The position numbers were made by a program, and so were the translations under genes. The notes beneath the pieces were generated by a model. That model did no database searches, was not told the origin of the DNA, and saw only the letters and a list, made by a program, of their open reading frames with translations. A stretch of DNA of 45,881 bases from an uncultured bacterium (GTDB taxonomy: Bacteria; Bacillota; Clostridia; Oscillospirales; Oscillospiraceae): positions 1 through 45,881 of the forward strand of contig CAOKLO010000026.1 in NCBI GenBank assembly GCA_948469375.1. Reading direction: 5' to 3'. Position 1 is the first letter of the stretch, and each line of letters opens with the position of its first letter. Below, piece by piece: positions 11,921-25,453 of the stretch.

Positions 11921-12365
11921 AAAAAAGCACGTTCCCTGCTGGAACGCGCCAAACGCGGCCCCCGCGAAAGCGTTCCTCAGCCTTCCTGGGGAGAGGAAAA
12001 GGAACGGAACGGGCGGAGCTCTCTCCGCAGGGGGAAGCGGAGCAGAGCCGGGTTTCTTCTGACGACACTTAGCCCCCAGCCGTCCTACATCCGCGGCTGG
12101 GGGCTTACTTCTGGTTTTGATTGTCCAAGGGCCTGTACCTTCACTTTCTTCCGAACGCTTCGGATGGACTTGCGTTGGGGTTCCGCCTGAAACTGTTGTC
12201 TCCCTGTTTCCTCAAACAATGGTAGGCTTCAGACTGAATCTGGCTTCCGCCGCTTTGATTAAGCATGTTTGGAACGAGCCGAGGCTTCGTTTCACTTTGC
12301 GTCTCCCAATCGCAGAAAGAGTGGTGCGTTCTACGTTAATACATTGGACTCACCTTTTCCTTTCT
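11921..12365 (-). ncRNA. Candidate structured non-coding RNA, class not recognised
   Basis: No credible protein gene lies in this 450-base gap, but it looks like an RNA gene on the minus strand. A near-perfect promoter (12372-12400) should start a transcript near 12365. A small stem (CGTTCC/GGAACG, 11930-11946) followed three bases later by T6 (11926-11921) could end it. In between are many local helices: CCAAT pairing with ATTGG across a CGCA/TGCG hairpin (about 12350-12300), AACGA-GCC/GGC-TCGTT (about 12290), TTCAG-T-CTGAA (about 12235), CCGAA/TTCGG (about 12160), an 11-bp GCCCCCAGCCG/CGGCTGGGGGC stem (12072-12104) and CTCCGC/GCGGAG. I see no conserved core of RNase P RNA, tmRNA, SRP RNA or 6S RNA. 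A 27-codon frame starting GTGAAACGAAGC near 12295 is the only small peptide with a possible ribosome site. Confidence 0.5.
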
Positions 12366-12371
12366 GTCTGT

Positions 12372-12400
12372 ATTGTACGATAAACGCTCCAATTTGTCAA
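12372..12400 (-). promoter_or_regulatory. Strong sigma-A promoter upstream of the candidate RNA
   Basis: Minus strand TTGACA (12400-12395), a 17-base spacer and TACAAT (12377-12372). It is one of the best promoters in the window, yet no protein gene follows for 650 bases. Confidence 0.85.
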
Positions 12401-12465: not shown

Positions 12466-13059
12466 TCACCAGATGTCGTCCAGGTATCCGTCGTTTTCAA
12501 TAGCCAGCCCGTACCAGCTCAGCCCCGCATCCGCCGCGTCCCCAAAGGTGGGATGCCGTCCGGCCACCATGGCCCAGGTATTATACCAGAACACATAGGT
12601 AATATCCAAATGGCTGGGCAGAATCTCCTCGATGATGACCCGCAGCTGGTCGAATCCCTCCGGAATACCCGCCACATCGGGAAAATACACCTTCACATAA
12701 TTGGGCTGCTCCGTCTCCTCCGCCCTGGCATTGATCCCGCAGCCCCGCAGGGTATCATTGATGGCCTCAAGGGTAAAGCTGTCGCCGCTGATGCGCAGCA
12801 GCGCGGCCAGCGCCGCCCGCCGCTGTCCCACCGTGGTGCACACCGGCCGGTAGGGCAGCAGCGCCTCAATCCGTTCCAGCCCGAAATTCTCAGCTGTGAC
12901 CAGGCTCATCTCCCGGGCGGTATCCTCCAGCTCCTGCGCTCCCCCCTCCAGCTCCGCGCCATAGGCGGCCAGCTCCCCCCGGTTGACGGCGCCGGGCCGC
13001 AGATCATACACCCCCAGCGGCTGGAGCAGGTTCACCAGGCACTCCTCAAACCTCACCAT
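12466..13059 (-). CDS. Baseplate protein, gpI/XkdU (YmfQ, DUF2313) family
   Basis: A 197-residue protein similar to XkdU/YmfQ, the wedge protein that joins the baseplate to its periphery and usually to the fibres. Recognisable parts are the N-terminal LLQPLGVYDL, the middle LPYRPVCTTVGQRRAALAAL and GDSFTLEAINDTLRGCGI, and VYFPDVAGIP followed by EEILPSHLDITYVFW near the end. It begins inside the preceding J-type gene (14 bases of overlap). In most PBSX-like phages the tail-fibre gene follows immediately. Here the next feature is a hairpin and an RNA-like region, so nothing obvious binds a host receptor. Confidence 0.85.
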   Translation of the reverse strand: MVRFEECLVNLLQPLGVYDLRPGAVNRGELAAYGAELEGGAQELEDTAREMSLVTAENFGLERIEALLPYRPVCTTVGQRRAALAALLRISGDSFTLEAINDTLRGCGINARAEETEQPNYVKVYFPDVAGIPEGFDQLRVIIEEILPSHLDITYVFWYNTWAMVAGRHPTFGDAADAGLSWYGLAIENDGYLDDIW

Positions 13060-14179
13060 CCACGCCGCCTTCCTCCGCCGTATCGTCGGTCTCGCTTCCG
13101 GACGGACCGCGCTCCTTCCCGCTATCCGCGCCGTTGACGATGGTCCTCTCTCCCAGCACCGGCAGCGTGATATTGCTCAAAGGCAGGTCCTCCGCTGGAC
13201 TGACCAGCTGGCAATTGGCCACCCCGTCCACGCCGTAGATCAGCGAGATCAGCTGTGCCCTGGGCAGCGGCTGGCCCAGCCGCTCCCCGTTGAACCAGTC
13301 CTCCAGCCTGTCCCGCACCGCCTGCGCTACCTTGTCAAAGTCCCACGCATCCTTTGCCCACAGCTTGACAGCCACATCCACCGTTTCCACCGCAGGCGGC
13401 AGCACCTTCACATCACAGGCGATCTCCCGCACCCGGTCAAAATGCGCCTGGAGCGCATCCAGCAATTTCTGGTCCGGCGCCCCTCCCTGGGCGGCCGGCA
13501 CCACATCCACCGTGCCCACCCCCCGGTTTCGGGGCAGCACCGTCACCGCCGCCACTGCGTCAAATGACATGGCCGCCTGACGGTAAAACGCGTTGTTGGC
13601 CCCATTGGCCAGCCGCTGGAAGGTGGCCAACACCCGGACCCGCAGCTCCTCGTCGCTCTCCGCGTCCTGCCCGTTGGACAGCGCCTCCGGATTGGCGCAG
13701 GCCACCACTCCTATGGGCGGCATCGCCATATACACGATGGTCCCCTGTCCCACGTTGCCCGCCGCCCCGGCCTCCACCGCCGTCACGGGCGCCTCGCAAT
13801 ACGCCTCTCCCGCCGGAATGATCCCGCTCCGGTCGGTGATAAACCGCACGCCGCCCGCCGTCATGCACACGGTGCCCTGGGGCACCTGGGTATCCGCCTC
13901 CCTGGCCTCACCCACATAAAACCGCACCGTTCCCGCAGCGCAAGCGGCCCCTCTCCGGGTCACCCCCCGCAGTTTCGCGTGCTTGTCCAAGTCCTCTCCC
14001 AGAGCCGTCTGGGGGAAGCACTGCCGCCGGGTCCACTCCGCCTGGACATACAGGCTGTAAATCTGCGCCGCCACGGCGTAAAACCGCACCGCCAGCTCGC
14101 TGCTTCCTCCCGCGGTCTGGCCGGTCTGGGCCTGGAATTCCGAGGCCAGCCCCTGATAAATCTCCTCAAGCGTCATCAA
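13046..14179 (-). CDS. Baseplate J family protein (XkdT-like)
   Basis: A 377-residue homologue of gpJ/XkdT, the main wedge component that closes the baseplate ring. Signatures include the N-terminal SELAVRFYAVAAQIYSLYVQ, the beta-rich GTVRFYVGEAREADTQVPQG and FITDRSGIIPAGEAYCEAPV, and VDVVPAAQGGAPDQKLLDAL further on. The C-terminal 30 residues are charged and low in complexity, which is unusual and may be a local extension. It sits between the gp25-like and gpI-like genes, the canonical W-J-I order. Confidence 0.9.
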   Translation of the reverse strand: MMTLEEIYQGLASEFQAQTGQTAGGSSELAVRFYAVAAQIYSLYVQAEWTRRQCFPQTALGEDLDKHAKLRGVTRRGAACAAGTVRFYVGEAREADTQVPQGTVCMTAGGVRFITDRSGIIPAGEAYCEAPVTAVEAGAAGNVGQGTIVYMAMPPIGVVACANPEALSNGQDAESDEELRVRVLATFQRLANGANNAFYRQAAMSFDAVAAVTVLPRNRGVGTVDVVPAAQGGAPDQKLLDALQAHFDRVREIACDVKVLPPAVETVDVAVKLWAKDAWDFDKVAQAVRDRLEDWFNGERLGQPLPRAQLISLIYGVDGVANCQLVSPAEDLPLSNITLPVLGERTIVNGADSGKERGPSGSETDDTAEEGGVDGEV

Positions 14180-14183
14180 CGTA

Positions 14184-14540
14184 TCATTCCTCCAACTGCG
14201 CCGTCACCAACAGCGCTTCCCCCCGCCACAGCAGCTCCACCGACACCATCAGCGCATCCCGCTCCTGCCGCACCGCCGCTCCGGTAACGGTCACATCCTC
14301 CAAGCCGTCCAGCGCCTCCACGGCAAACTGCCTGGCCAGCACCTCCCAGGCGGAGGGCTTCTCCCGTCTCAGCTCTCCCATCCGGCTGCCCAGATCCGGC
14401 AAAAAGGAGAAGCTCCCCCGCTGGGCCGTCAGCCGGAACAGCGCCTCATTCAGCAGGGCCTCCCCGTCCTGCACCACCGCCACGCCGCCGTTCCCGTCGG
14501 CCACATAATCCCTGTTTTTCAACAGCAGGCTCATCTTCAC
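14184..14540 (-). CDS. Baseplate wedge protein, gpW/gp25 family (XkdS-like)
   Basis: A 118-residue protein of the T4 gp25/P2 gpW family, the conserved core of contractile baseplates, which triggers sheath assembly. The family pattern NEALFRLTAQRGSFSFLPDL, followed by GSRM, is clear; in gp25 this region carries the conserved acidic and arginine residues contacting the sheath. Length and position before the J-type gene are as expected. Confidence 0.88.
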   Translation of the reverse strand: MKMSLLLKNRDYVADGNGGVAVVQDGEALLNEALFRLTAQRGSFSFLPDLGSRMGELRREKPSAWEVLARQFAVEALDGLEDVTVTGAAVRQERDALMVSVELLWRGEALLVTAQLEE

Positions 14541-14547
14541 CGTCTCC

Positions 14548-14982
14548 CTATCCCAATAGCATCAGCACAATCCGTATAATCAGCTCCTCCAGCGTCTCAT
14601 CCTTGACATAGACCTGCCCTTCCAGCCGTATGTTTTCCGCTTCGATCACCGCGTCGGCCCCCGCCTTGACCGTCACGCCCTCTCCCTCCAGGGCAGTACG
14701 TTTCCCTTGGAGCCGCAGGCTTTTTGCCTCCACCGTCACCGCGTCGGGCACGTCTCCGTCCTGTCTGGCCCCCGCCACACAGGGGATCTCCCCCTTCCCC
14801 TGAATGACCAGCACCCGCTGCCCCACCTTGGGGGTCCAGCGGTAACCCGCCGGGGAATAGACCTGCAAGCCCCTGCGCTCACAGTCCAGCAGCGCCGCCG
14901 TCTCCCCGCCGCTCATGGTGATGACGCCCACCTGGCCCTCGCCCTGCTCTGTGGGCCGCTTCTGCTGACCGCTCAGCCACAT
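14548..14982 (-). CDS. Baseplate spike, gpV/XkdR-like
   Basis: A 144-residue protein with an N-terminal OB-fold-like half (GQVGVITMSGGETAALLDCE, VGQRVLVIQGKGEIPC) and a C-terminal half made of short alternating strands (AVTVEAKSLRLQGKRTALEG and on to IRLEGQVYV). That half looks like a triple-stranded beta-helix needle, the membrane-piercing tip of contractile tails. It is short compared with P2 gpV (about 211 residues). It ends in a hydrophobic LIIRIVLMLLG rather than the metal-binding HxH tip seen in many spikes, which is a little odd. Position between hub and gp25 supports the call. Confidence 0.7.
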   Translation of the reverse strand: MWLSGQQKRPTEQGEGQVGVITMSGGETAALLDCERRGLQVYSPAGYRWTPKVGQRVLVIQGKGEIPCVAGARQDGDVPDAVTVEAKSLRLQGKRTALEGEGVTVKAGADAVIEAENIRLEGQVYVKDETLEELIIRIVLMLLG

Positions 14983-14995
14983 ACCACACCCCTCC

Positions 14996-15949
14996 TCAAA
15001 TCATCGCGTCCACCTCGCCCAGCACCAAGGTAGTCGTCAGGCCCTCGCTGCCGCAGGACACCTCGGTCTGTGCCGCCCGATACCGCCCATTTGCCCCGCA
15101 GCCCTGCAGCTCCACCGACACCAGCTGTCCCGGCCAGGCCAAAAACGCCCCGGCCACGGTGATCCTCATCCGCACCCGCTCCCGACGGGCGGCCCGCAGC
15201 TGGTAGTCGGCATTGTACCGCATGGCGGCCGTCCCGGTGGTATTGGGGACCGTAATAATTTTTCGCGCCCGTCCGCCCTCCGCCAGGAATTGACTGTCCG
15301 ACACCCACTGGGTCCCCGTGGAGGTCCGCCGCCGCACCGCCACCTGGCTGAGCGCCCCATGCCGCTCGTCCCGGTACTCCCAGCCGGTCACCGGGTCCGA
15401 ATCCCGGACCCGCAGCTCCTCCCCGTCCCCAGGCGGGTCCAGCACCAGCCGTCCCATCCGGTCGAACCGGGGCACCACCCCGCCGTAATAGCAGGCATAC
15501 CGCCGCACCACGCTCCACTCGCTCTCTCCGCTGGACACCGTAAACCCGGTCACGGCGGGCAGCCCGCCGCCGCCCACCGCCGTCACGCCATAGGGCGCCA
15601 CATGGCCCCCCACGATATCCGCCCGGGTGGCCCTCTGATATTCCGCAGGCAAGGCCTCATTGTCCAGCAGCAGCGCCGCCATTCCCCGTCCGGACAGCTC
15701 CAGATACAGCCCGTCCTTCCCGCAGGTCACGGCATACTCGTCCACCACTCCGGTGAACACCCGCTGGCTCTCCCACTGAGCATAAAACCGGCAGGCGGCG
15801 GACAGCGCCCGCTCCTGCCCCCGTTCCCACAGGCACCGCAGAAAAAAGCTGTCACAGGGCGTGTCGGTCCCATAGCAGAACTTCCAGCCGGTCACGGTCG
15901 GCAGCTCCAGCTCCCCGCCGTTCCCCAGCCTCACCCAGCATTTTATCAT
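14996..15949 (-). CDS. Baseplate hub protein (XkdQ/gpD-like)
   Basis: A 317-residue protein matching XkdQ of PBSX-type tails, the hub that links tube end to spike (gp27/gpD fold). Seen are an N-terminal beta domain with WKFCYGTDTPCDSFFLRCLW, the Gly-rich VYFTG-like exchange of the hub barrel (QRVFTGVVDEYAV) and LSGRGMAALLLDNEA, all typical of this family. It starts in the ATGA overlap with the LysM gene upstream. No separate tail lysozyme domain is present. Confidence 0.82.
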   Translation of the reverse strand: MIKCWVRLGNGGELELPTVTGWKFCYGTDTPCDSFFLRCLWERGQERALSAACRFYAQWESQRVFTGVVDEYAVTCGKDGLYLELSGRGMAALLLDNEALPAEYQRATRADIVGGHVAPYGVTAVGGGGLPAVTGFTVSSGESEWSVVRRYACYYGGVVPRFDRMGRLVLDPPGDGEELRVRDSDPVTGWEYRDERHGALSQVAVRRRTSTGTQWVSDSQFLAEGGRARKIITVPNTTGTAAMRYNADYQLRAARRERVRMRITVAGAFLAWPGQLVSVELQGCGANGRYRAAQTEVSCGSEGLTTTLVLGEVDAMI

Positions 15950-16530
15950 ATGATCCTCACCTTCTGTCCCGGATAGATCAGGTTCGGATTTCGGATGGAC
16001 GGATTCAGCTCAATGATCCGGCTCAGCGCCACCCCATAGCGCCTGGACAGCTCCCACAGGGTATCCCCCCGGGCCACCGTGTGATACTGTCCCTGCCCGC
16101 TCTCCTCCGTCTCCGCTTCCCCGGCGGTCCCATCCGCCTCCTGAATGGGCCGGGCGGACAGCCGCACCGTTCCAGCGCCGCCCTCCACCTCCCAGAACTC
16201 AAAGGAGTAGGCCACATAGTCCCGCCGGGGCATCTGCCGCAGCTCCAGCCCCGCAAACCACGCCGTGGTGGTCATCCACACCGGATGGACCAGCACCCCC
16301 GGCGTCTCCTCATAGAACACGGTGGCCAACTGCTTAAACAGCTCGTAGGCATTCTCCCCTACGAACTCCCCCTCTCCCTTAAGCACCCGCCTGGTCTGCC
16401 CCAGGCTTTGCAGATAATGCAGCCCAAAGGGGATTTTATGGGTGGCCAGCTTTCTCTCAAAGGCGATGGAATACACCCTGGGGTTGTGGGGCCACACAAA
16501 ATTCTTAAACCGCATGGGCACAAGGATCAC
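15946..16530 (-). CDS. LysM-domain baseplate protein (XkdP-like)
   Basis: A 194-residue protein with an N-terminal domain of the XkdP/gp53 type (VWPHNPRVYSIAFERKLATH, ELRQMPRRDYVAYSFEFWE). The C-terminal LysM domain, about 145-194, runs from YHTVARGDTLWELSRRYGVA to PNLIYPGQKVRII. In contractile tails this protein bridges tube, hub and spike rather than binding peptidoglycan. GTG start at 16530. In PBSX it directly follows the tape-measure gene, which fixes the tape-measure slot to the small gene upstream. Confidence 0.85.
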   Translation of the reverse strand: MILVPMRFKNFVWPHNPRVYSIAFERKLATHKIPFGLHYLQSLGQTRRVLKGEGEFVGENAYELFKQLATVFYEETPGVLVHPVWMTTTAWFAGLELRQMPRRDYVAYSFEFWEVEGGAGTVRLSARPIQEADGTAGEAETEESGQGQYHTVARGDTLWELSRRYGVALSRIIELNPSIRNPNLIYPGQKVRII

Positions 16531-16542
16531 AGCGTCACCCCC

Positions 16543-17196
16543 TTAAAAAATCGTCATTCCGCCGTCGTACCGTCTGCTGTCCCGGCGTACGGCCCGGTCC
16601 AGCTCATCCACGGTGAGGGCGGCCGTCCGCCCCGGCTCCTCCGCTCGGACGGCCCGTCCCGCCTGCTCCACCGGCGCGGCCTGAACTGCGGAATGTCCAG
16701 CCTGGACGGTCTGCCGGTACAGTCCCTCCAGCCCCCGTTCCGCCGCCGTCAGCGGGCGCACCGCCGCGTCCAGCTCCGCCGTCTCTGCCCGGTCCCGCCG
16801 CACACGCAGCACCGCCGGCTCCACATCCCCGATCCCCGGCCTTCTCAGCACCACAGCCCCATTGGCCCCCATCACAGCCTCCGTCAACCCGTCCAGCCAG
16901 AACGCCCCTTCCACAGCAGCGTCCCGCTCAGCCATGCCGCCATCCGTTTTCAAATTCTCTTCCCATCTCTCCGTCCCGTCCGCCACTATCTCCGGCTGCC
17001 GCTCCAGCCCCCCGGCCGCCGCCGAAACACCTTCCGCCGCTGGACTCTCCATTTCCTTTTCATCCTCCAGCACGCTTCCCATTTCCACATCCAAAACGGG
17101 CGGAGCGGAGACCTCCGCCCCCAATCTCAGCGTCACGTCCTCCTGCTCTTCCTCCTCTTCCAGCAGCGCCAGCAGCTCCTCCAGCCGGTCAACCAA
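16543..17196 (-). CDS. Small protein in the tape-measure position, function unknown
   Basis: A 217-residue acidic protein starting with TTG at 17196, overlapping the chaperone stop by 8 bases. The N-terminus is a Glu-rich helix (RLEELLALLEEEEEQ). The middle is low in complexity (Ala, Glu, Pro, Arg) with no membrane segment, no long heptad and no peptidase motif. The C-terminus has a more ordered LTVDELDRAVRRDSRRYDGG. Its place between tail chaperone and LysM gene is that of the tape-measure protein (XkdO in PBSX exceeds 1000 residues). It may be an extremely short tape measure, which by the usual 1.5 angstroms per residue would mean a tail of roughly 30 nm. It may instead be a hub accessory in a particle with no true tape measure. 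Confidence 0.6.
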   Translation of the reverse strand: MVDRLEELLALLEEEEEQEDVTLRLGAEVSAPPVLDVEMGSVLEDEKEMESPAAEGVSAAAGGLERQPEIVADGTERWEENLKTDGGMAERDAAVEGAFWLDGLTEAVMGANGAVVLRRPGIGDVEPAVLRVRRDRAETAELDAAVRPLTAAERGLEGLYRQTVQAGHSAVQAAPVEQAGRAVRAEEPGRTAALTVDELDRAVRRDSRRYDGGMTIF

Positions 17197-17808
17197 CGTC
17201 CCCGCCCCCCTTCAACTCCCGATACCTATTCCAATCAAATCCGGCGTTGACCGCCCAGCTTCCCTTGGGCGCGCCGCACACCGGGCAGGGCTCCTGCTCC
17301 GCCCTGGCCCGGCACTCGGGACAAAGCCGCGCCAGTTCCTCCTCCTGGTCCAGCGCCAGATTCAGCGCGCACCACAGGTAATCCCGGTCGGTCATCCTTT
17401 TCGCCCGGTCCTCCGTGGGCAGAGCGCCAAACAAGCGGAGCACGCGCCATTGAAGGCGCTCATAACGCGCGTGCTCCAGGCTTTTTTTCGTCTGGAAATC
17501 TCCCGCTCCCCGTCCAGGGCGGAGGGATTGCACTCCCGGTTGAATTCCGCCCACCGGTCCGCCAGCCCCGCGATATCCTCCACCCGCAAGGCGTCCAATA
17601 CCGCCCGTCCACCGTCAAACACCGCTTCACCGTTCCGCTCCAGGGCCCGGGCAATGAGGCACGCATTCCGGCACAGCGCCCGCTCCCGGCCATCCTCCGC
17701 CAGGGAATCGCCCTCCCGTCGGGCCTCCAGCACCTCCCAGGCGGACAGCAGCCGCAGCTCCCCCTCATCCACCTTTATCCGGTCGGGCCCAATCCAAAAC
17801 CCGTCCAT
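17189..17808 (-). CDS. Tail assembly chaperone, made in two forms by an apparent -1 frameshift
   Basis: The zero-frame product (17808-17392, 138 residues) fits the XkdN/gpG-type chaperone. At 17488-17482 the message reads A_AAA_AAA_G in the zero frame, a classic slippery heptamer. A -1 slip gives a fusion of 109 + 97 = 206 residues ending at 17189. The extra C-terminal part (SLEHARYERLQWRVLRLFGA, TDRDYLWCALNLALDQEE) looks better conserved than the 29 residues made by the zero frame after the site. It also carries a CPEC-CPVC zinc ribbon. This is the gpG/gpGT logic of tail chaperones that load the tape measure and tube. Frame continuity supports this; I did not identify a downstream stimulatory structure. 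Confidence 0.75.
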
Positions 17809-18222
17809 TTACGCCGCCGTCTCCATCCGGTGCCCGGCCACCAGGGTCAGCTTCTCCACCACCATCTTTCCCAGCTGAGCGTCCTCCTGAATATCGCCCC
17901 ATTGACAGTTGGAGTAGATGACCTTCCGGTCCGGCTTGCAGATGACCAGGGAGAAATCCTTCATCTTGTAAAAATCCAGCCCGTCGGCAATGGCCTGATC
18001 GGTGGCATACAGCCTGGTCAGCTGAATGACATAATTTTGCGGTCCCTGCACCGTAGCCACCGGCTCCTCCTCCCCGAAGGCCTCCACCGAATAGGAGGTC
18101 CTGGTGGTCTTACAGTTGTAGCTCTGCACCACCGCCACCTTCTGCCCGTCCATCTCCAGCCAGATATCGGAGCTGGTGGGAAAGCCCGCCGCACTTAGCC
18201 CCGCGTTGATACTCGAACTCAT
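17809..18222 (-). CDS. Tail tube protein (XkdM-like)
   Basis: A 137-residue tube protein; it forms the stacked inner tube pushed through the target envelope. Family patterns are SDIWLEMDGQKVAVVQSYN near the start and a central GPQNYVIQLTRLYATD. DFYKMKDFSLVICKPDRKVI and DAQLGKMVVEKLTLVAGHR follow. The ATG at 18222 follows AAGGAGG and sits 12 bases after the sheath stop; the open frame further upstream overlaps the sheath gene and is not used. Confidence 0.9.
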   Translation of the reverse strand: MSSSINAGLSAAGFPTSSDIWLEMDGQKVAVVQSYNCKTTRTSYSVEAFGEEEPVATVQGPQNYVIQLTRLYATDQAIADGLDFYKMKDFSLVICKPDRKVIYSNCQWGDIQEDAQLGKMVVEKLTLVAGHRMETAA

Positions 18223-18233
18223 AAGCAGCCTCC

Positions 18234-19268
18234 TTAAACCGTAATGTGGGCGGACAGCCACACCTGATTCAACCCATGGGCCACCGTAAAGGCGAACTCC
18301 ACCAGGCACACCGTGGGGTCGCTGTCCAGCGCGGACACCGTCACGTCCTCATAGCCGTCGATAATCTCCCGGCTCACCCGCTTCTCCAGCTCCAACACCG
18401 TCTGGGACCGGATGGCTCCCCGGCTCTGCACGGTGTTCTTGGCCCTGCTGAACTTGGCCCGCAGCGCGTTCCGGATTCCGGGGATCACCTCATCCACCAC
18501 CAAAACGGTGGTCAGCTCCCGCCAGGTGGTATCCAACACCCCGCCGGTTTTGGTCCGGGTGGTCACGCCCCGCACCACATAGCAGCTCCCCGCCAGGGTC
18601 TCCAGCGGCGTCACACCCCCCTGCACCAGCAGATCGATGTCCCCGTCGTCATAGCCGCACTCCAGCCCTTCCAGCCCGTACAGCTGTGCGCCGCCCAGGG
18701 GAAGCGCCGGGTCGCTGTTTCCCGCGACGGCGCCCGCCGCCGCCGCGGCGCACATGGCCCCGCCGGACCCGTCGCCCGCGCCGGGGGCCACCAGCACCAC
18801 CCGTTCGCAGTTCAGCTGGGCGGCCCTCTGAGTCAGCTGCTCCACCGTCTCACCGGCCTTGCCGCCCACCACGGCGATCCGCTCCCGCCGTGCGGCAGAG
18901 CACTCCTGTACCGCCGCCTTCAGCGCCTGCTGCACGCTCAGCTCGGCGCTGTCACACACCACCACGCTCACGTCCTCAATGGCCGCCGCCGCCGCAAACG
19001 CCGCCGCGTAGTCCTCTCCGGCCGGAATCCCGTACACCACCCCGGCCCCATTGCGGATGGCCAGCTGCGCCATCCGGCTGAGCACACAGTCGCCCACATC
19101 CGCCGCCGCCTTGCTGTAGCTGGTCCACTGATAGCTTTTCTCTGCATCCGTCCGCTCCGCAGCCGCCACCACGGCCACGCTGCCGCCGCCCGCAGCCGCC
19201 GCCGTCAGGCTGGATGTCTCATAGGAGGAATACACCCCCGGCCTCTCATGCTTGGTCACCGCGTTCAT
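18234..19268 (-). CDS. Contractile tail sheath protein (XkdK-like)
   Basis: A 344-residue sheath subunit whose contraction drives the tube. It starts RPGVYSSYE-like (the conserved RPGVY opening), has an Ala/Gly-rich central domain and a C-terminal domain with WRELTTVLVVDEVIPGIRNA (donor and acceptor strands of the sheath mesh) and ALDSDPTVCLVEFAFTVAHG. It is shorter than PBSX XkdK (about 466 residues), so an outer decorative domain is likely missing. Presence of a sheath proves the contractile (myovirus) type. Confidence 0.92.
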   Translation of the reverse strand: MNAVTKHERPGVYSSYETSSLTAAAAGGGSVAVVAAAERTDAEKSYQWTSYSKAAADVGDCVLSRMAQLAIRNGAGVVYGIPAGEDYAAAFAAAAAIEDVSVVVCDSAELSVQQALKAAVQECSAARRERIAVVGGKAGETVEQLTQRAAQLNCERVVLVAPGAGDGSGGAMCAAAAAGAVAGNSDPALPLGGAQLYGLEGLECGYDDGDIDLLVQGGVTPLETLAGSCYVVRGVTTRTKTGGVLDTTWRELTTVLVVDEVIPGIRNALRAKFSRAKNTVQSRGAIRSQTVLELEKRVSREIIDGYEDVTVSALDSDPTVCLVEFAFTVAHGLNQVWLSAHITV

Positions 19269-19765
19269 TTCATTCTCCCCTTTACCTCAAAGTCCACAAA
19301 GGCCCCGCCGTCATCCATCCGAGCCACCAGCCAGGCCCTGCACCGGCAGCTGACCGTCTCCCGGTACAGCCCCTCTTTTCCCAGGAACTCCACCCGGCCA
19401 GCCTGCACCTCCAGCGCAGCCAGCCCCGCCGCGCCCCGGCACACCAGGCACTCGGTCACGGCCTCCGCCGTGCTCTGGCACATACTCTCTCCCCCGTCTC
19501 TGGGCGCGAACACATCCAGCGCCAGCGTCAGCTCCACCTCCCGCCCATAGAGCTCCCGCTCCACGCCGGACCCAGAGTCCTTTATAACGCCCAAATAGTC
19601 CTGAAATCCACCCTGCGTACACACCACCCGGCTGAGGGAGACGGCGGCCACCGCCTCCCTCCACCGGTTGGCCCGGACGCTCTCCATGGCGGCGACAGCG
19701 TTCAGCCCGTTCTCCCGCAGCTGCTCCACCACGCGCTCCCGCCACCCATTCAGCGCCCCGTTCAC
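19265..19765 (-). CDS. Tail terminator/completion protein
   Basis: A 166-residue protein just upstream of the sheath, the place of the neck-tail terminator in PBSX-type clusters. It begins with an amphipathic helix (LNGWRERVVEQLRENGLNAV) and continues with beta strands (RELYGREVELTLALDVFAPR) ending KEGLYRETVSCRCRAWLV, consistent with a terminator fold that caps the tube. Sequence identity to a named family is not visible to me, so the call rests mainly on order and general pattern. It overlaps both neighbours by 4 bases. Confidence 0.65.
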   Translation of the reverse strand: MNGALNGWRERVVEQLRENGLNAVAAMESVRANRWREAVAAVSLSRVVCTQGGFQDYLGVIKDSGSGVERELYGREVELTLALDVFAPRDGGESMCQSTAEAVTECLVCRGAAGLAALEVQAGRVEFLGKEGLYRETVSCRCRAWLVARMDDGGAFVDFEVKGRMK

Positions 19766-20097
19766 GGCGCATCCTCACCGCAGGGCCGCAATGCCAGCCA
19801 CAGGTGTGTGACCTGTCCGCCCACCCAGATGGGCCGCACCGTCATCACCTCATAGCGCCGGCCGCCCCAGCTGAGCCAGCCTCCCGGCCCCAGCTCGTCC
19901 AAGGGCAGCCCCGGCTCCGCCAGTCCCAAAAATCGGTCCTGGGAATAGCTCCCCAGCGCCCCGGCGGTATACTGCCAGTCCGCCTGCGTCATGGGCTGGA
20001 CGATGGCTATACCCCGTCCGGCCTCCTTGCCGTCCTCCCGGCAGCACACCATCTCCTGCCCATAGGTCTTGATCACCCATTCAAACGCCTCAATCAA
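19762..20097 (-). CDS. Head-closure (stopper) protein, XkdH/gp16-like
   Basis: A 111-residue, mostly beta protein. The segment RFLGLAEPGLPLDELGPGGW and then WGGRRYEVMTVRPIWVGG matches small head-tail joining proteins that plug the capsid channel after packaging. The TTG at 20097 overlaps the TGA of the gene before (TTGA), following GGGGGG(T)GA; the same frame is open for 90 codons more upstream but with alanine/glycine shadow composition. The gene lies between adaptor and terminator genes, the normal connector order. Confidence 0.68.
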   Translation of the reverse strand: MIEAFEWVIKTYGQEMVCCREDGKEAGRGIAIVQPMTQADWQYTAGALGSYSQDRFLGLAEPGLPLDELGPGGWLSWGGRRYEVMTVRPIWVGGQVTHLWLALRPCGEDAP

Positions 20098-20447
20098 CCG
20101 CTCACCCCCCGAAACACAAATCCTTCCTCCCGCAAAAAGGGCCTCATCAGCTCCAGGGCCTTCTGGGACAGCCTTCCGCCACTCCCCTCCGGCCCCTCCC
20201 TGCGCACCGAGATATCTCCCGCCGTCAGCGAGGTGATTCCCTCCAGCCCCCGGCTTCCCCGCACCCAGTCCATGACCAGCCACGCCGCCGCCAGCGGATA
20301 GGCCCCATCGCAGTCCTCCGCCGTCAGGCCGTCCCGCAGCCGCCGGTCCAGCGTCCGGCAGGCCGTGGCGCACAGCGTCCGAAGCAGCTCCTCTTCCTGC
20401 CCCGCGCCGCCCAGGGCCTGCACCAGCTCCAATACCTGTTCCGTCAT
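20094..20447 (-). CDS. Head-tail adaptor protein (gp6-like)
   Basis: A 117-residue, mainly helical protein (ELVQALGGAGQEEELLRTLC, RRLRDGLTAEDCDGAYPLAA) typical of the small adaptors that dock under the portal. The helix pattern and AAAWLVMDWVRG segment resemble the phage gp6/XkdH-neighbour DNA-packaging/connector family. ATG at 20447 lies 11 bases past the stop of the protease gene. Confidence 0.68.
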   Translation of the reverse strand: MTEQVLELVQALGGAGQEEELLRTLCATACRTLDRRLRDGLTAEDCDGAYPLAAAWLVMDWVRGSRGLEGITSLTAGDISVRREGPEGSGGRLSQKALELMRPFLREEGFVFRGVSG

Positions 20448-20457
20448 GCCCGCGCTC

Positions 20458-21327
20458 CTAAATGAGGAAGGCCCCGTCGGCAATCTCCCGCGGCACAGCA
20501 TCCTTGCCGTAGCTCAGCTGTACCTGCGGCCCCAGCAGCCGGTCCGCCTTCTCCCGGTACACCTTGATCAACCCCAGCAGCTCCTCCTCGTCCAGCTTCC
20601 CAGCCACTTTCTCCAGCAGCGCATGGCCCGCCTCCGGCTCGGCGATCCCCGCCAGCCGCACCATCTCATGCCGCAGGCTTTTGAGGTACTTGCGCCCCAG
20701 CCGGGCCTCATCCTCCAGCCTTCTGCCCGCGCTTTTGATGACCCCGGCCCTTCTCTGGGCGGGCACCGCCACAAAGGACCACTCGTAGGCGTCCGCAGCC
20801 CCGGTGAGCACCCCATGGCACACCTGCCCGCCGTACTCCTCCCCCTTCTCATGGGGGCACTCCTCCAGCGGCCGGCCGCAAACGGAGCAGATCACCTGCT
20901 TCACCTCGCACCCCACGCTGACCTCCCGCTTGATTCCGCCGTCGATTTCAGCAATCAGGGAGGCATTCTCCTCGGTGCGCATCATATAGGCCCACCCCTT
21001 CAAAAAGCGGCAGGGCCTTCCATCGGCGGTGAGCGTCCCATCGCCGCCCACCACCTCGGCGCGGTAAATCCGGGCCGTCTGCCCCCGTGCCGACCACTGG
21101 TGGTCAAACACCCCGGACACCCCCACAAACATGGTTGCCAGCTCATCCAGCGTGCCGTCGTCAAACCGCTCAAAATCCCGGTCAATGTCATTGTCGCACA
21201 GCCGCAGCGCAAAGGTATACACCTCATCCGCCTCCAGCTCCCGCCGCGCCAGCGCGTTAATCAGGGCCAGCTCCGACTCATCCGGCGCTCCGATGCCCTT
21301 CACCACCGCGTCTTTACAGATTTCCAT
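20458..21327 (-). CDS. Prohead protease/scaffold (XkdF-like)
   Basis: A 289-residue protein of the XkdF-type prohead serine protease family, which processes or scaffolds the capsid. The likely catalytic region shows DHQW with His76 and the YEWSFVAVPA strand with Ser184. A zinc-knuckle stretch, ICSVCGRPLEECPHEKG with a later GQVCHG, is known in this family. The C-terminal third is a charged helix (RRLEDEARLGRKYLKSLRHE) and may serve as scaffold. The ATG at 21327 lies 7 bases from AAGGAG and overlaps the portal stop; an ATG at 21333 is too close to that site. The gene follows the portal, but unusually it comes after the capsid. Confidence 0.82.
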   Translation of the reverse strand: MEICKDAVVKGIGAPDESELALINALARRELEADEVYTFALRLCDNDIDRDFERFDDGTLDELATMFVGVSGVFDHQWSARGQTARIYRAEVVGGDGTLTADGRPCRFLKGWAYMMRTEENASLIAEIDGGIKREVSVGCEVKQVICSVCGRPLEECPHEKGEEYGGQVCHGVLTGAADAYEWSFVAVPAQRRAGVIKSAGRRLEDEARLGRKYLKSLRHEMVRLAGIAEPEAGHALLEKVAGKLDEEELLGLIKVYREKADRLLGPQVQLSYGKDAVPREIADGAFLI

Positions 21328-22462
21328 TCCCATTCTCCTTCTCCACAGCCCCGGCCTGGGCCCGGTACAGCGCCGCCCTGGCTTCCGACTCCTCGTCCTG
21401 AAGGTTGACGTCCAGCCAGTCCACGCGCACCCGCTCGTCAAACCCCCGCAGCCGCAGCCAGACCTCGCAGATCCGCTCCACCACCGGTTCCAGCCCCCGC
21501 CGGACGGCGGCAATCTCACTGGTCAGAATATCGGCCTGCTGACTGCTCATCCGCTCGGTGGACGACCAGCTCAGCCCCAGCAAAAAGGGCGGAATCCCCG
21601 TCTTTGCCACCAGCTGCTCCAGAATCTGCCGCACGGGCACCTCGCTGTCCAAAATCTGGTTGTCCGCCCCGATGGTCCGAATCTCCACATCTCCGGCGGC
21701 CACAAAATCCCGCACGGCTCCGTCCCGGCCCGCCTGCATAGCGGCGGACCACTCCCGGGCCACCTGCCCGCACCGCTCCTGGACCGGCATCCCGTCCTCA
21801 CCCTTGCACACCACGGCGAAGCGCACATTGCCCATCCGCTCCCAGTTCTTCCCCATGGCCTCAAAGATTTTCACCAAAATTTCCACCAGGAACGGCATAG
21901 ACCGCAGCATGGAAACCCCATAAGGCGCTCCCACCTCCGGCTGAAAGGGGGTAAACAGCAGCAGCTCCTGCCGCTCCAGCTTCCGGACGGTCCCATCGCC
22001 GTCCCGGACGCACAGGGCAAAGTCCAGCGGACTGTCCCCCTCTTTGATCTCCACCCGGCTTACATCCCCGCACAGCACTGCGGCTACGCCGCGCCCATCC
22101 CGGGCGGGGACGATCTCGCCCACTGCCCGGCCGCATACAATCATGGAGTCCAGATATTGATCCAGAAAGGCCTGAATCCCTCTCTGTCCCCGTCCCACGG
22201 GCACCGTGCGCAGAAACCGCTCCAGCTCCTCCTGGGCCGCCTCATCCCGACAGGTCACCGTCACTCCGCCGCACAGCCGCACCAGCTTGTAGATGGCGGC
22301 GTCCACCACCGGCACCGCCTCTCGGATCACCCGGTACAGCTCAATCTCCCCATGGCTCAGCGGCACATACCCGGCGATCTGCGCGAAGGGGTGCTGGCCC
22401 GCGTCCCGAAGCTGGGCGGCGGCCGCAGGCGCTCCGCCCGTTCTTCGTCTTTTCCCGCCCAT
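21314..22462 (-). CDS. Portal protein
   Basis: A 382-residue portal, the 12-mer ring through which DNA enters the capsid. Family features are VIREAVPVVDAAIYKLVRLC near the start, the wing ELLLFTPFQPEVGAPYGVSM (the conserved PYG), KTGIPPFLLGLSWSSTERMS (the PPFLLG motif of SPP1/PBSX-like portals) and the long C-terminal helix ADILTSEIAAVRRGLEPVVE. It starts at the stop of the capsid gene with a short overlap. Length is at the low end for portals (usually 400-550), in line with the general economy of the cluster. Confidence 0.9.
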   Translation of the reverse strand: MGGKRRRTGGAPAAAAQLRDAGQHPFAQIAGYVPLSHGEIELYRVIREAVPVVDAAIYKLVRLCGGVTVTCRDEAAQEELERFLRTVPVGRGQRGIQAFLDQYLDSMIVCGRAVGEIVPARDGRGVAAVLCGDVSRVEIKEGDSPLDFALCVRDGDGTVRKLERQELLLFTPFQPEVGAPYGVSMLRSMPFLVEILVKIFEAMGKNWERMGNVRFAVVCKGEDGMPVQERCGQVAREWSAAMQAGRDGAVRDFVAAGDVEIRTIGADNQILDSEVPVRQILEQLVAKTGIPPFLLGLSWSSTERMSSQQADILTSEIAAVRRGLEPVVERICEVWLRLRGFDERVRVDWLDVNLQDEESEARAALYRAQAGAVEKENGNGNL

Positions 22463-23472
22463 CAGACGGTCAGCACCCGGCTGGCGTCCTCAAAGATCTT
22501 GGCATAGCCTGAAATGGTGGTAATCGCGGCCCGCTCCAGCTGCCGGTCAATAATCTTGTCGTACTCCACCATCACGTCGCCGGCCTTGACCATCTCCAGC
22601 GCATAATTCCGGTCCAGCCCGATGATCTTGCCCGCCGGCACTGCAGAGGTGCGCAGCACCTTGGCCCCCATGGGCGTAATCAGCCTTCCGGTGCCATGGA
22701 AATCCAGCCCCGCCGCAGCGTCCTGCATCTGTCTCATTCCCAGCAGCTTGGGCATGGTATCGGTTCCCACCAGCAGCGTATTGAGCTGATAGGGCTCAAA
22801 GCTGTTCCAAAAGGCCAGCAAATCCTCATAGCTCAGCTGCCCTGCGGTCTCAACCCCGATTTCCCGGGCGGCGTTGCCGTTGCCGTCGCCGTTCAAAATG
22901 ACCTGAATGGCGTCCTCCAAATGCATCCGCCCGATTTGCGCGCCGATCTGGCGCAAAGTGACGGAAAACAGGTCCAGGCGCTGGAACCGGATGGCCTCAT
23001 AGGAGGCCACCAGCATCCGCCCCCGCTTATGCAGCTTCACCAGGCTGTCCCGCGTGCGCACGGTGGTCTGCGGAATGGCCGCTCCCTCGGCCACCTGCTT
23101 GAGCTCCTTCTCATCCTCCGGCACGGAGGTAATGGACCGGTAATCCATCCCCTCGATCAGCGTCTCCGTGGCGGTGATATCCGGCAGGATATTGGCCTCC
23201 TCCATGCCCACCTTCACCGCCCGGGCGATGTACTCCGGAAACAGCACCGCCGACTGGCTGGTGGAGAAAAATTTGTCCACCAAATCGGACCCCGCGCCCT
23301 TCACCCGGATATCGAACCGCTTCAGCTGCCTCTGATAGGCGTCCAGCCCTTCCAACGCGGTGCCCCGGTACTGCTCACTGGGGTCATGCTTTTCCAGCAC
23401 CTGAGTAAAGGACCTGCCCGCCTCATGGTACATACCCTTTTCCAGCTTCAAATTGTCAAATCTCTGCGCCAT
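22462..23472 (-). CDS. Major capsid protein (XkdG-like, HK97 fold)
   Basis: A 336-residue capsid protein. Seen are an N-terminal arm (ALEGLDAYQRQLKRFDIRVK), the E-loop region SQSAVLFPEYIARAVKVGME, the KHGRMLVASYEAIRFQRLDL-type spine helix in RGRMLVASYEAIRFQR, and a C-terminal PAGKIIGLDRNYALEMVKAG typical of XkdG. The ATG at 23472 follows GGAGGAG at 6 bases; a TTG at 23499 overlapping the previous stop is less likely. The unusual point is order: in PBSX and most tailed phages the capsid follows portal and protease, here it precedes both. Confidence 0.9.
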   Translation of the reverse strand: MAQRFDNLKLEKGMYHEAGRSFTQVLEKHDPSEQYRGTALEGLDAYQRQLKRFDIRVKGAGSDLVDKFFSTSQSAVLFPEYIARAVKVGMEEANILPDITATETLIEGMDYRSITSVPEDEKELKQVAEGAAIPQTTVRTRDSLVKLHKRGRMLVASYEAIRFQRLDLFSVTLRQIGAQIGRMHLEDAIQVILNGDGNGNAAREIGVETAGQLSYEDLLAFWNSFEPYQLNTLLVGTDTMPKLLGMRQMQDAAAGLDFHGTGRLITPMGAKVLRTSAVPAGKIIGLDRNYALEMVKAGDVMVEYDKIIDRQLERAAITTISGYAKIFEDASRVLTV

Positions 23473-23495
23473 ACCGCACTCCTCCCTTCTGTCTG

Positions 23496-23843
23496 TCAAA
23501 GCTTGATGACGGCGGTCTTTTCGCCCTCATCCACCGCCAGCACCAGGCATTTCAGCCCGCCCGCAGCGCACTTGACGCCGCCCGCGCCGTCACAGGCCAG
23601 CTCCTGCCACCCCGTCTCGGGCGCGCTCCCGGTGCAGCCCACCTTCACCGCGCCGCCGATCTGAACGGCGGCTGCGCCGCCCCGCACGCCGCTCAGCACC
23701 ACGCCGCAGGGCGCGGCGCCGTCCGAGCCCAGGCCCACTGTGCCGCTGTTGGTGAGCGTCACCGCCATACCCGGCCGAACGCCCTCTCCGTCCACCTGGA
23801 AGGTGGCGACCGCCTGACCGACGCCCTCAAAACAGATATCCAT
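23496..23843 (-). CDS. Capsid decoration-like protein
   Basis: A 115-residue, Gly/Val/Ala-rich, all-beta protein, just upstream of the capsid gene. Segments such as VGQAVATFQVDGEGVRPGMA and GCTGSAPETGWQELACDGAG, and an ending in KTAVIKL, look like the small trimeric decoration proteins (DUF2190/gpD-like) that stabilise filled heads. The call rests on composition and place. A decoration protein would be of use only to a head that expands on DNA packaging. Confidence 0.6.
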   Translation of the reverse strand: MDICFEGVGQAVATFQVDGEGVRPGMAVTLTNSGTVGLGSDGAAPCGVVLSGVRGGAAAVQIGGAVKVGCTGSAPETGWQELACDGAGGVKCAAGGLKCLVLAVDEGEKTAVIKL

Positions 23844-23900
23844 CTCACATTCTCCTCCCGCGATAAAATTTTTATAGAAATCCCTTCCGGGTATTTCTTC

Positions 23901-25136
23901 CTAGAACCTTCCCCGCTCCACAAACCTGGCCGCGCTTCCGTCGCCGTTCTCCATGCTCATCACGAAGTACCGGATCTCGTCCATGGCGTGGTCAAACTCC
24001 TTCCGCACCCGGTCCTGTGTCCCATCGTCCTCCCAGCAATACCGGGCAAACTCCCTTGCCGCCGCCTCGCATCCCCGGCAGATCACAATTCTTCCATTCT
24101 TCAGCGCCTCAGCCGTCCTCCGAATTCCCTCCAGCACCCGGTTATCCGCCTTCCGCACCGTCCACCCTTCCCGTCTCAGCGCCTCGATAAAGCTGGCCGC
24201 CGAGGGGTCCACGACCACCAGCTCGACCCGCCGGTCCCCCGCCAATCTCCTCAAATCCCGGACATACTCCCCATCCGTTTTCTGCCGTCCCTCCGCCCGC
24301 GCGTCGTAGTAATACTCGCGCACCCGGTACCAAGTCCCGTCAAGCTCTCCCCAAAGCCCAAAGGAGGCCGGATTTCTGGTCCCGTAATCGCAGGAGATCC
24401 GCCACCGGGAAAAGGGCCCCTCCGGCGCCTCCGGCATCCGGTCCGCCTGGAAGAAGTCGTACACCAGCCCCTCCGCCGCGACCCACTCCCCCAGCACATA
24501 CCGCCGGTAGAAGCACCCCCGGAACATCCGCTGATACCGTTCCCGCACCTTATCCGGCAGTCCCGGATTGTCCTCCATTGTAAACCGAAGGTACAGCATC
24601 CGCTTCTCCTCCGCCTTACAAATCCACTCCTGATAAAACCAGTGCTCCGGCCCCGCCGGGTTGCAGGAGAGCCAAATCCGCCCGCCCTCTACGGAGCACC
24701 GAGCGCAGGCCTGCTCCACAAAAGATCTGGGCATCAGCGCCGCCTCGTCCAGCAGCACCCCCGCCAGCGTCACCCCCTGAATGGAGGCATAGCTTCCCTC
24801 GTCCCGCCCGCCATACAGGCAGAATACATTCTCCCGGCCCCCGCCCCGGACCACTACCTCATTCCGGCTCACCTTTTCCTCCCACCGGAACCCCAGCCCC
24901 TCCAGCACGGGCCGGGCCTGCTCCAGCAAATTCCGCCGCACCCCGTTGATGGACCCGGCGCACAGGCCAAACCTCTGTCTCCGAAAGCAGCTCATCGCCC
25001 ACAAAAAGAAGGAGACGCTCAATGCAAAGGTCTTCCCCGACCGCACCGCCCCGTCGCAGATCACGCCGTCAAACCCGTCGTCTCTCCACCAATCCAGCAC
25101 CCTCCTCTGCTTTGCTGAAAAGGTCAGCCGCTTCAC
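23901..25136 (-). CDS. Terminase large subunit (PBSX XtmB type)
   Basis: A 411-residue packaging motor. The ATPase has Walker A GAVRSGKT (29-36), Walker B GVLLDEA (126-132; Asp130, Glu131) and the coupling motif SCNP (157-160). The RNase H-like nuclease has Asp250 in RISCDYGTRNP, Asp310 in ELVVVDPSAASF and Asp386 in FDHAMDEIRYF. All expected catalytic residues are present, so nothing suggests loss of packaging. It overlaps the upstream gene by 4 bases. A 57-base AT-rich gap (23844-23900) separates it from the decoration gene and may hold an internal start or processing site. Confidence 0.95.
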   Translation of the reverse strand: MKRLTFSAKQRRVLDWWRDDGFDGVICDGAVRSGKTFALSVSFFLWAMSCFRRQRFGLCAGSINGVRRNLLEQARPVLEGLGFRWEEKVSRNEVVVRGGGRENVFCLYGGRDEGSYASIQGVTLAGVLLDEAALMPRSFVEQACARCSVEGGRIWLSCNPAGPEHWFYQEWICKAEEKRMLYLRFTMEDNPGLPDKVRERYQRMFRGCFYRRYVLGEWVAAEGLVYDFFQADRMPEAPEGPFSRWRISCDYGTRNPASFGLWGELDGTWYRVREYYYDARAEGRQKTDGEYVRDLRRLAGDRRVELVVVDPSAASFIEALRREGWTVRKADNRVLEGIRRTAEALKNGRIVICRGCEAAAREFARYCWEDDGTQDRVRKEFDHAMDEIRYFVMSMENGDGSAARFVERGRF

Positions 25137-25453
25137 GCCTCACCACCGCCCTCCGGGCGGGACAGCCCATCCAGAAACGCCTCCAGCTCTCCGTCCCGCT
25201 GCTCCTCCATCAGCTCCCGCAGCATGGCCAGCACCCGCACCTTGTCCACGAACCTGGCCTCAAACGTCCCGTTGGCGTTTCGCTTCAGCTCCGCCACCCC
25301 CGTCAGGTCCAGCTTGTCCACCTGCTCCGCATCCTCCGCCTCCAAAAACGCCAGCTTCACCACATCATTGTTTTTCCACCTCGCCAGCTTCCGCAGATAG
25401 GCCGTCAGCTCCTGTCTGAGCTTCTGCTCCTCCGATCTCTCCTGGGTCCCCAT
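25133..25453 (-). CDS. Terminase small subunit-like protein
   Basis: A 106-residue, strongly helical and charged protein in the small-terminase position (EQKLRQELTAYLRKLARWKN, DVVKLAFLEAEDAEQVDKLD, RVLAMLRELMEEQRDG). Small terminases choose the DNA to be packaged. Here the usual N-terminal helix-turn-helix of XtmA is not evident and the protein is less than half the length of XtmA (about 265), so DNA choice may be relaxed. ATG at 25453 follows AAGGAGG. Only 60 bases separate it from the rlmH terminator, with no good sigma-A promoter visible. Confidence 0.6.
   Translation of the reverse strand: MGTQERSEEQKLRQELTAYLRKLARWKNNDVVKLAFLEAEDAEQVDKLDLTGVAELKRNANGTFEARFVDKVRVLAMLRELMEEQRDGELEAFLDGLSRPEGGGEA

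What the first reader, a model, noticed from the sequence alone, without database searches (positions are those of the whole stretch)
12466..25453. Minimal, intact contractile particle with DNA-packaging genes but no phage life-cycle genes
Seventeen consecutive genes cover packaging, head, connector, contractile tail and baseplate, yet integrase, repressor, replication, lysis and fibre genes are all absent and core host genes sit directly on each side. All frames are open apart from one apparently programmed shift, and terminase keeps Walker A, Walker B, coupling and three nuclease aspartates. A dead prophage should show random decay. The economy (13 kb) recalls gene transfer agents, but with a contractile tail and in a Gram-positive anaerobe. 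PBSX of Bacillus is the nearest known logic, and it has fibre and lysis genes. Release and target recognition would need host functions encoded elsewhere.
Basis: partly seen in the sequence, partly recalled or inferred. Interest (0 to 1): 0.9.

Follow-up and report, generated by a model that had tools for sequence, protein, structure and literature searches.

The report
Inherited gut-bacterial phage-like DNA-packaging particle
A 13 kb set of genes for a small phage-like particle, without the genes a virus needs to live, appears to have been passed down with its hosts across many genera of gut bacteria, and it looks like an unrecognised gene transfer agent.

Summary
In detail: 19 consecutive genes (20 ORFs, one programmed shift) encode packaging, head, connectors, contractile tail and baseplate between rlmH and mreB. 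It is not a dead prophage. Of 58 chosen family loci 42 have at least 16 of 17 core genes. Element divergence follows RpoB divergence (Mantel Spearman r = 0.85, 30 genomes; 0.75 for head genes, 50 genomes of the order; no permutation reached either). Genes are under purifying selection, TerL catalytic residues are identical in 36 of 36, and the frameshift has a conserved A_AAA_AAA site and stem-loop. The small terminase matches only the C-terminal half of its family; [quoted passage not shown] Eight family loci in four genera lack a detectable sheath, yet terL, portal and capsid stay under selection, which favours DNA packaging over tailocin killing. Ten of 33 loci carry lysis- or adhesion-like genes behind the cluster; three searches of the window's genome found none. 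A 2026 paper reports GTA-like packaging in Oscillospiraceae, with an operon identified only in Faecalibacterium; this family is a candidate source. Packaging and transfer are untested.

The parts
25133..25453 (-). small terminase subunit, C-terminal half only (no N-terminal DNA-binding half)
   Evidence: 17 of 25 members of the alignment match Pfam Terminase_2 at E <= 1 (best 1e-6), the window's own does not; in 5 of 7 relatives scanned singly the match covers profile positions between 58 and 129 of 141, the other 2 had no match; AlphaFold model pLDDT 81.6
23901..25136 (-). large terminase subunit, PBSX family
   Evidence: TIGR01547, 168 bits, over cut-off; catalytic residues 36 of 36
23496..23843 (-). 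small virion structural (decoration-like) protein
   Evidence: phrog_4588, 6.8e-19
22462..23499 (-). major capsid protein
   Evidence: PF25209 6.8e-15; phrog_3922 3e-109
21314..22462 (-). portal protein
   Evidence: phrog_30703 7.7e-158; PF04860 below its cut-off
20458..21519 (-). prohead protease-like protein (XkdF position); start codon uncertain
   Evidence: phrog_16951, unknown function; H140 and S201 in at least 35 of 36; protease reading is inference
20094..20501 (-). head-tail connector-like
   Evidence: no family hit; position and conserved synteny
19762..20373 (-). head-tail connector/closure-like
   Evidence: no family hit; position and conserved synteny
19265..19765 (-). tail terminator-like
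   Evidence: phrog_25177, unknown function; position
18234..19268 (-). contractile tail sheath
   Evidence: PF04984 and PF17482 over cut-off
17809..18309 (-). tail tube (true start probably inside; relatives mostly about 129 aa)
   Evidence: phrog_27038, unknown function; position after sheath; lengths
17392..17808 (-). tail assembly chaperone, upstream frame
   Evidence: no family hit; position and frameshift architecture
17482..17488 (-). A_AAA_AAA slippery heptamer for -1 frameshift
   Evidence: in frame in 18 of 18 loci with a -1 overlap; only sense A7 in the element
17437..17477 (-). stem-loop downstream of the slippery site
   Evidence: z below -1 in 16 of 18 loci, median -4.0; 90 control stretches median -0.27
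17189..17554 (-). tail assembly chaperone, -1 frame extension
16543..17196 (-). 217-aa fast-evolving acidic protein at the tape-measure position
   Evidence: no family hit; position; gap between tube and adaptor in relatives; highest dN/dS
15946..16530 (-). XkdP/gp53-like adaptor with C-terminal LysM
   Evidence: PF01476 and PF07157 over cut-off
14996..15949 (-). XkdQ/gp44-like baseplate hub
   Evidence: phrog_177 2.2e-37
14548..14982 (-). spike/XkdR-like baseplate protein
   Evidence: phrog_25991, unknown function; position
14184..14540 (-). gp25/GP46-like wedge protein
   Evidence: PF07409 below cut-off, phrog_180 0.0024
13046..14179 (-). baseplate J-like protein
   Evidence: PF04865 7.6e-53
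12466..13059 (-). tail protein I / Mu gp48-like (XkdU position), last gene
   Evidence: PF10076 below cut-off, phrog_521 1.4e-19

Best explanation
It is a domesticated, vertically inherited gene-transfer-agent-like element. The host makes a small phage-type capsid with a very short contractile tail. Because TerS has lost its DNA-recognition half, TerL should start packaging almost anywhere and fill heads with host DNA rather than with the element. Shown by computation: intact genes, selection, co-divergence with the host, a TerS without the N-terminal half, a conserved programmed frameshift, and tail loss with head and packaging kept. Inferred: particle production, non-specific headful packaging, release (perhaps by lysis genes elsewhere or from co-resident prophages) and delivery to relatives.
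For: Co-divergence with RpoB: mean of nine genes r = 0.854, 0 of 999 permutations, maximum 0.51; four head genes at order level r = 0.751, 0 of 499, maximum 0.234. In 7 genomes that also hold an SPP1-type prophage portal, that portal gives r = -0.28 and the element 0.78. dN/dS 0.01-0.64 in every gene measured except the tape-measure-position gene; 0.07-0.26 for terL, portal and capsid in tail-reduced forms. TerS truncation, stated for known GTAs in general in PMC11841831 (passages read). TerL residues 36 of 36. Frameshift signal. At least 16 of 17 core genes in 42 of 58 chosen family loci, 30 genera by hand count. GTA-type packaging of host DNA reported for Oscillospiraceae (Onthomonas, 3 of 25 events), while of four bins searched there only a Faecalibacterium bin gave a GTA operon (PMC12946183).
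Against: No particle, packaged DNA or transfer has been shown. Three same-genus genomes lack it and one copy has an internal deletion (L358), so it is dispensable. No PF05105 holin, relative of the M15 protein or of one fibre was found in the window's 92% complete genome, so release and adsorption are unexplained. Phages of narrow host range can co-diverge in part, TerL alone correlates least (0.55), and the prophage control has only 7 genomes. The loci were chosen by strong TerL match, not at random. Some small genes have dN/dS of 0.6-0.9 in the distant tail-reduced pairs, several with near-saturated dS. Element GC (65%) exceeds the flanks (60%) although GC3 is similar.
Confidence: 0.68

Rival explanations
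1. A PBSX-type killing particle: it packages host DNA incidentally but its selected function is contractile killing of competitors.
For: TerL is of the PBSX family; PBSX-like tail gene order (recalled); PBSX packages 13.4 kb host DNA fragments but is described as not injecting them and acting as a tailocin (PMC12946183 passages).
Against: In 8 family loci of four genera the sheath and gp25, gpJ, gpI are undetected, while terL, portal and capsid remain under purifying selection in the pairs measured; no receptor-binding gene in the window; the tape-measure-position protein has only 217 aa.
Confidence: 0.17
2. A phage satellite or minimal phage that relies on a helper for replication, integration and lysis and packages its own DNA.
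For: Complete packaging and structural set of 13 kb; 357 capsid relatives in a viral contig collection, 29 of the 80 kept on contigs of 12-15 kb.
Against: No integrase or replication gene recognised in the cluster; no DNA-binding half in TerS to choose its own DNA; co-divergence with the host over an order; capsid relatives in named isolated phages at most about 28% identical.
Confidence: 0.08
3. A recently inactivated prophage whose structural operon has not yet decayed.
For: Empty site in three same-genus genomes; one copy with an internal deletion (L358).
Against: Same gene set in 30 genera, selection on the genes, host co-divergence and a conserved frameshift signal.
Confidence: 0.03

Closest known systems
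PBSX of Bacillus subtilis
   Same: PBSX-family terminase, contractile tail module in similar order (recalled), host DNA packaging plausible
   Different: The window cluster has no fibre or lysis genes, a truncated TerS (PBSX XtmA is full-length, recalled), a 217-aa protein at the tape-measure position (PBSX has a long one, recalled), and it co-diverges with hosts over an order; no direct sequence comparison with PBSX was made
FpGTA of Faecalibacterium (PMC12946183)
   Same: Gram-positive gut anaerobe, TerS without obvious DNA-binding domain, terminase-portal-capsid operon, particles without visible tails (section read)
   Different: FpGTA is described as podovirus-like in two operons (10.5 and 5.5 kb, the second with fibre and lysis genes); the window has a sheath and one operon. 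Homology between the two was not tested
RcGTA and other alphaproteobacterial GTAs
   Same: TerS without DNA-binding domain, accessory and lysis genes elsewhere (PMC11841831 passages); vertical inheritance (recalled)
   Different: Not contractile and in another phylum (recalled); no homology tested; activity is proven there, not here

Membership tests
gene transfer agent | packages random host DNA rather than its own genes | not testable with these tools
   needs purified particles and sequencing
gene transfer agent | delivers the DNA to recipient cells | not testable with these tools
   needs a transfer assay
[quoted passage not shown]
gene transfer agent | inherited with the host | tested here: met
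   control (7 genomes only)
gene transfer agent | structural genes under purifying selection | tested here: met
gene transfer agent | no integration or replication genes in the cluster | tested here: met
   neighbours rlmH and mreB in the window; the genome was not searched for integrases
gene transfer agent | lysis and accessory genes in the host genome | tested here: inconclusive
   three searches of the window's genome negative; such genes follow the cluster in 10 of 33 loci (one of each kind confirmed by Pfam)
PBSX-like element | PBSX-family large terminase and contractile tail | tested here: met
PBSX-like element | own fibre and lysis genes | tested here: not met
   none recognised in the window cluster
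R-type tailocin | tail without head or packaging genes | tested here: not met
   terminase, portal and capsid present and conserved
FpGTA | sequence homology to FpGTA I | not tested
   FpGTA sequences could not be fetched by name with these tools

The most novel reading that the evidence does not exclude
An order-wide Gram-positive gene transfer agent lineage whose fuller form is a capsid with a very short contractile tail and whose tail has been discarded repeatedly while the packaging head is kept, so that the selected function is DNA packaging and release; it is the unidentified source of the random host-DNA particles reported from Oscillospiraceae in human faeces.
Probability: 0.45. Interest if true: 0.88.

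Novelty: new variant of a known kind. Interest (0 to 1): 0.78.

Why it matters
PMC12946183 reports GTA-like packaging as the commonest packaging of bacterial DNA that it saw in gut particles, but identified an operon only in Faecalibacterium. A conserved cluster over some 30 genera of a neighbouring group would give gene-level targets to test whether gut Clostridia exchange DNA this way. The loss series would show which half of a domesticated phage selection keeps. It would also mean that a number of short contigs filed as viral are host genes.

Tried and rejected
LexA/SOS box upstream of terS: one near-match in the window, none at the like place in most of the relatives, rejected as a shared regulator. 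One search chose antisense ORFs as RpoB; discarded and redone. One search aligned badly placed stretches and was used only for the remark that two relatives have other sequence after rlmH. The M15 search of 28 genomes gave matches in 22, but only two cover the query in full, both at element loci (G291, G154); the rest are short matches to its C-terminal third. The fibre search matched 6 of 16 genomes, one of them the source, the others weakly; not the window's. Literature: searches, judged from their listings, showed no description of this contractile cluster in Oscillospiraceae; the library lacks most subscription papers and preprints. PMC13432834 (passages only) concerns a lytic Faecalibacterium phage. 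Rfam gave no match at its cut-offs in the window and one weak, unlikely match before mreB.
Full report
What is there. On the minus strand, from 25453 down to 12466, lie 19 genes in the order terS, terL, decoration-like, capsid, portal, prohead-protease-like, two connectors, tail terminator-like, sheath, tube, chaperone in two frames, a 217-aa protein at the tape-measure position, LysM adaptor, hub, spike, gp25-like, baseplate J, tail protein I (families). Several assignments rest on position only and are marked so in the parts. The neighbours murA, a metallo-hydrolase, rlmH and mreB were named by recognition, not by a family search.

It is a family-wide element. A TerL relative occurs in 142 of 300 genomes of the family, 65 of 106 genera, 107 of 188 of the better genomes; this count includes ordinary prophage terminases, and by hand count 109 of the 300 are at E <= 1e-140. 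The family is Oscillospiraceae by record titles: contigs of equal length appear with names (for instance 68,943 bases, L082 = G285:C8; 193,098 bases, L092 = G064:C5). I fetched 58 family loci, chosen for strong TerL matches and mostly long contigs, so not at random. Of these 42 have at least 16 of 17 core genes; 9 are reduced; 1 has an internal deletion; 4 have TerL only; 2 are cut by ends (classes counted by hand). In the window's genus the capsid pair stands before the portal, in the other genera seen after the protease-like gene. Extents in 33 complete loci are 11.6-14.4 kb. A viral contig collection holds 357 relatives, 80 kept, 29 of these on contigs of 12-15 kb. Among 50,697 phage records 14 match, 5 of them unannotated faecal contigs at 54-66%; named isolates are at most about 28% identical.

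Inheritance. Over 30 genomes, mean distance of nine element genes follows RpoB distance with Spearman r = 0.854; none of 999 permutations reached it (maximum 0.51); single genes 0.55 (terL) to 0.84. With 20 genomes of other families in the order added, four head genes give 0.751; none of 499 reached it (maximum 0.234); one terL was not found. The nearest neighbour is of the same family in 46 of 50, and two of the four exceptions are sole members of their family in the set. As a control, SPP1-type prophage portals occur in only 7 of the 30 genomes and there show r = -0.28 against 0.78 for the element; this control is small. One search used wrong RpoB frames and is discarded.

Locus. In the window and L034 the cluster lies between rlmH and mreB; L033 has mreB downstream but no rlmH hit within its fetched 3.6 kb upstream; L075-L079 have rlmH upstream; L080-L084 show none. 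Three same-genus genomes without TerL have murA, hydrolase, rlmH, about 600 bases, mreB: an empty site. rlmH lies upstream within about 3 kb in L038 and L049 and on the other strand in L059; elsewhere flanks differ. So the place is shared by some relatives but not fixed, and the element was lost or never gained in some species; I did not decide which.

Selection and coding signals. dN/dS by Nei-Gojobori for five relatives of the window and one further pair is 0.01-0.64 in the element genes measured, except the tape-measure-position gene at 0.44-0.77. TerL catalytic residues are identical in 36 of 36. Of 34 loci examined for the chaperone, 18 (window included) show a -1 overlap and all 18 have A_AAA_AAA in frame; 4 read both parts in one frame; in 12 one or both parts were not recognised. 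A stem follows in 16 of 18, median z -4.0 against -0.27 for 90 control stretches (mononucleotide shuffles); L047 and L055 lack it. By eye the stem is kept with different base pairs in different genera.

Terminase. TerS members match Pfam Terminase_2 in 17 of 25 at E <= 1, best 1e-6; the window's own gives no match. Of seven relatives scanned singly five match, at profile positions between 58 and 129 of 141. The model has a long helix, two short helices, a hairpin and C-terminal helices. [quoted passage not shown]

Tail reduction. In the family, 8 fetched loci in four genera have no detectable sheath, gp25, gpJ or gpI (L051, L070, L346, L347, L349, L351, L353, L360); L348, of one of these genera, keeps the sheath; two of the genera also hold a copy with 17 or 16 of 17 genes (L050, L060). 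In six pairs of tail-reduced copies terL, portal and capsid have dN/dS of 0.07-0.26, with dS near 1-2 in three of the pairs; smaller genes reach 0.86 in the most distant pairs. In the order sample 43 of 295 genomes match the capsid, in 33 of 148 genera; 11 of the 43 are of the own family. Of the 32 others I fetched 20: 3 show a sheath, 12 a baseplate J, 7 neither, and one with a sheath is cut by a contig end. Those 7 genomes have no baseplate J relative anywhere by one search, while both positive genomes were found; one of the 7 is only 81% complete. Diverged tail genes could have been missed. The part kept is thus head plus packaging, which argues for a packaging function. Against this, L358 keeps terminase and baseplate genes but has lost the capsid.

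Release and targeting. Behind the last gene 10 of 33 loci carry genes like a holin (L038, L040, L041, L043, L049), a CBM5/12 protein (L038, L039, L040, L048) or an M15 peptidase (L056, L058, L064); Pfam was run on one of each. In the window's genome no PF05105 holin, no relative of that M15 protein and no relative of a fibre from another family was found; the genome is 92% complete and other lysis families were not searched. How particles would leave or bind cells is open.

Mechanism. Most likely a GTA-like particle: non-specific TerS, headful TerL, small head, very short tail. If tail length scales with the tape-measure protein (about 0.15 nm per residue, recalled), 217 residues give roughly 30 nm; that this gene is the tape measure is itself inferred from position. 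All steps from particle formation on are inferred.

Literature. PMC12946183 (abstract, section 9 and passages read) reports random host-DNA packaging as the commonest mode it saw in faecal particles, 3 of 25 events in Oscillospiraceae (Onthomonas), and, of four bins searched, a GTA operon in one Faecalibacterium bin, with homologues in twelve Faecalibacterium genomes. I could not test whether Onthomonas carries the present cluster or whether FpGTA is homologous.

Noticed in passing
window about 12060-12400, minus strand: A conserved RNA-like sequence with promoter-like start and terminator-like end, roughly 310 nt here and longer in relatives, lies between the cluster and mreB and also at the empty sites of three same-genus genomes; no Rfam family reaches its cut-off.
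   Followed up: partly
G000 contigs C27 (L072), C60 (L071), C123: The same assembly holds another sheath gene, a TerL at 34% and a second TerL at 58% identity on a small contig; prophages, a second copy or contamination.
   Followed up: no
L358 (G209): Decoration, capsid, connectors, sheath and tube are undetected while terminase, portal and baseplate genes remain: an internal deletion.
   Followed up: partly
window 23646-23717: ARAGORN calls a tRNA-Arg inside the decoration-like gene; probably a false positive in GC-rich coding DNA.
   Followed up: no
L153-L232: Viral-contig records carry this capsid and, in the six whose gene order was printed, much of the cluster: probably host-inherited DNA filed as virus.
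   Followed up: partly
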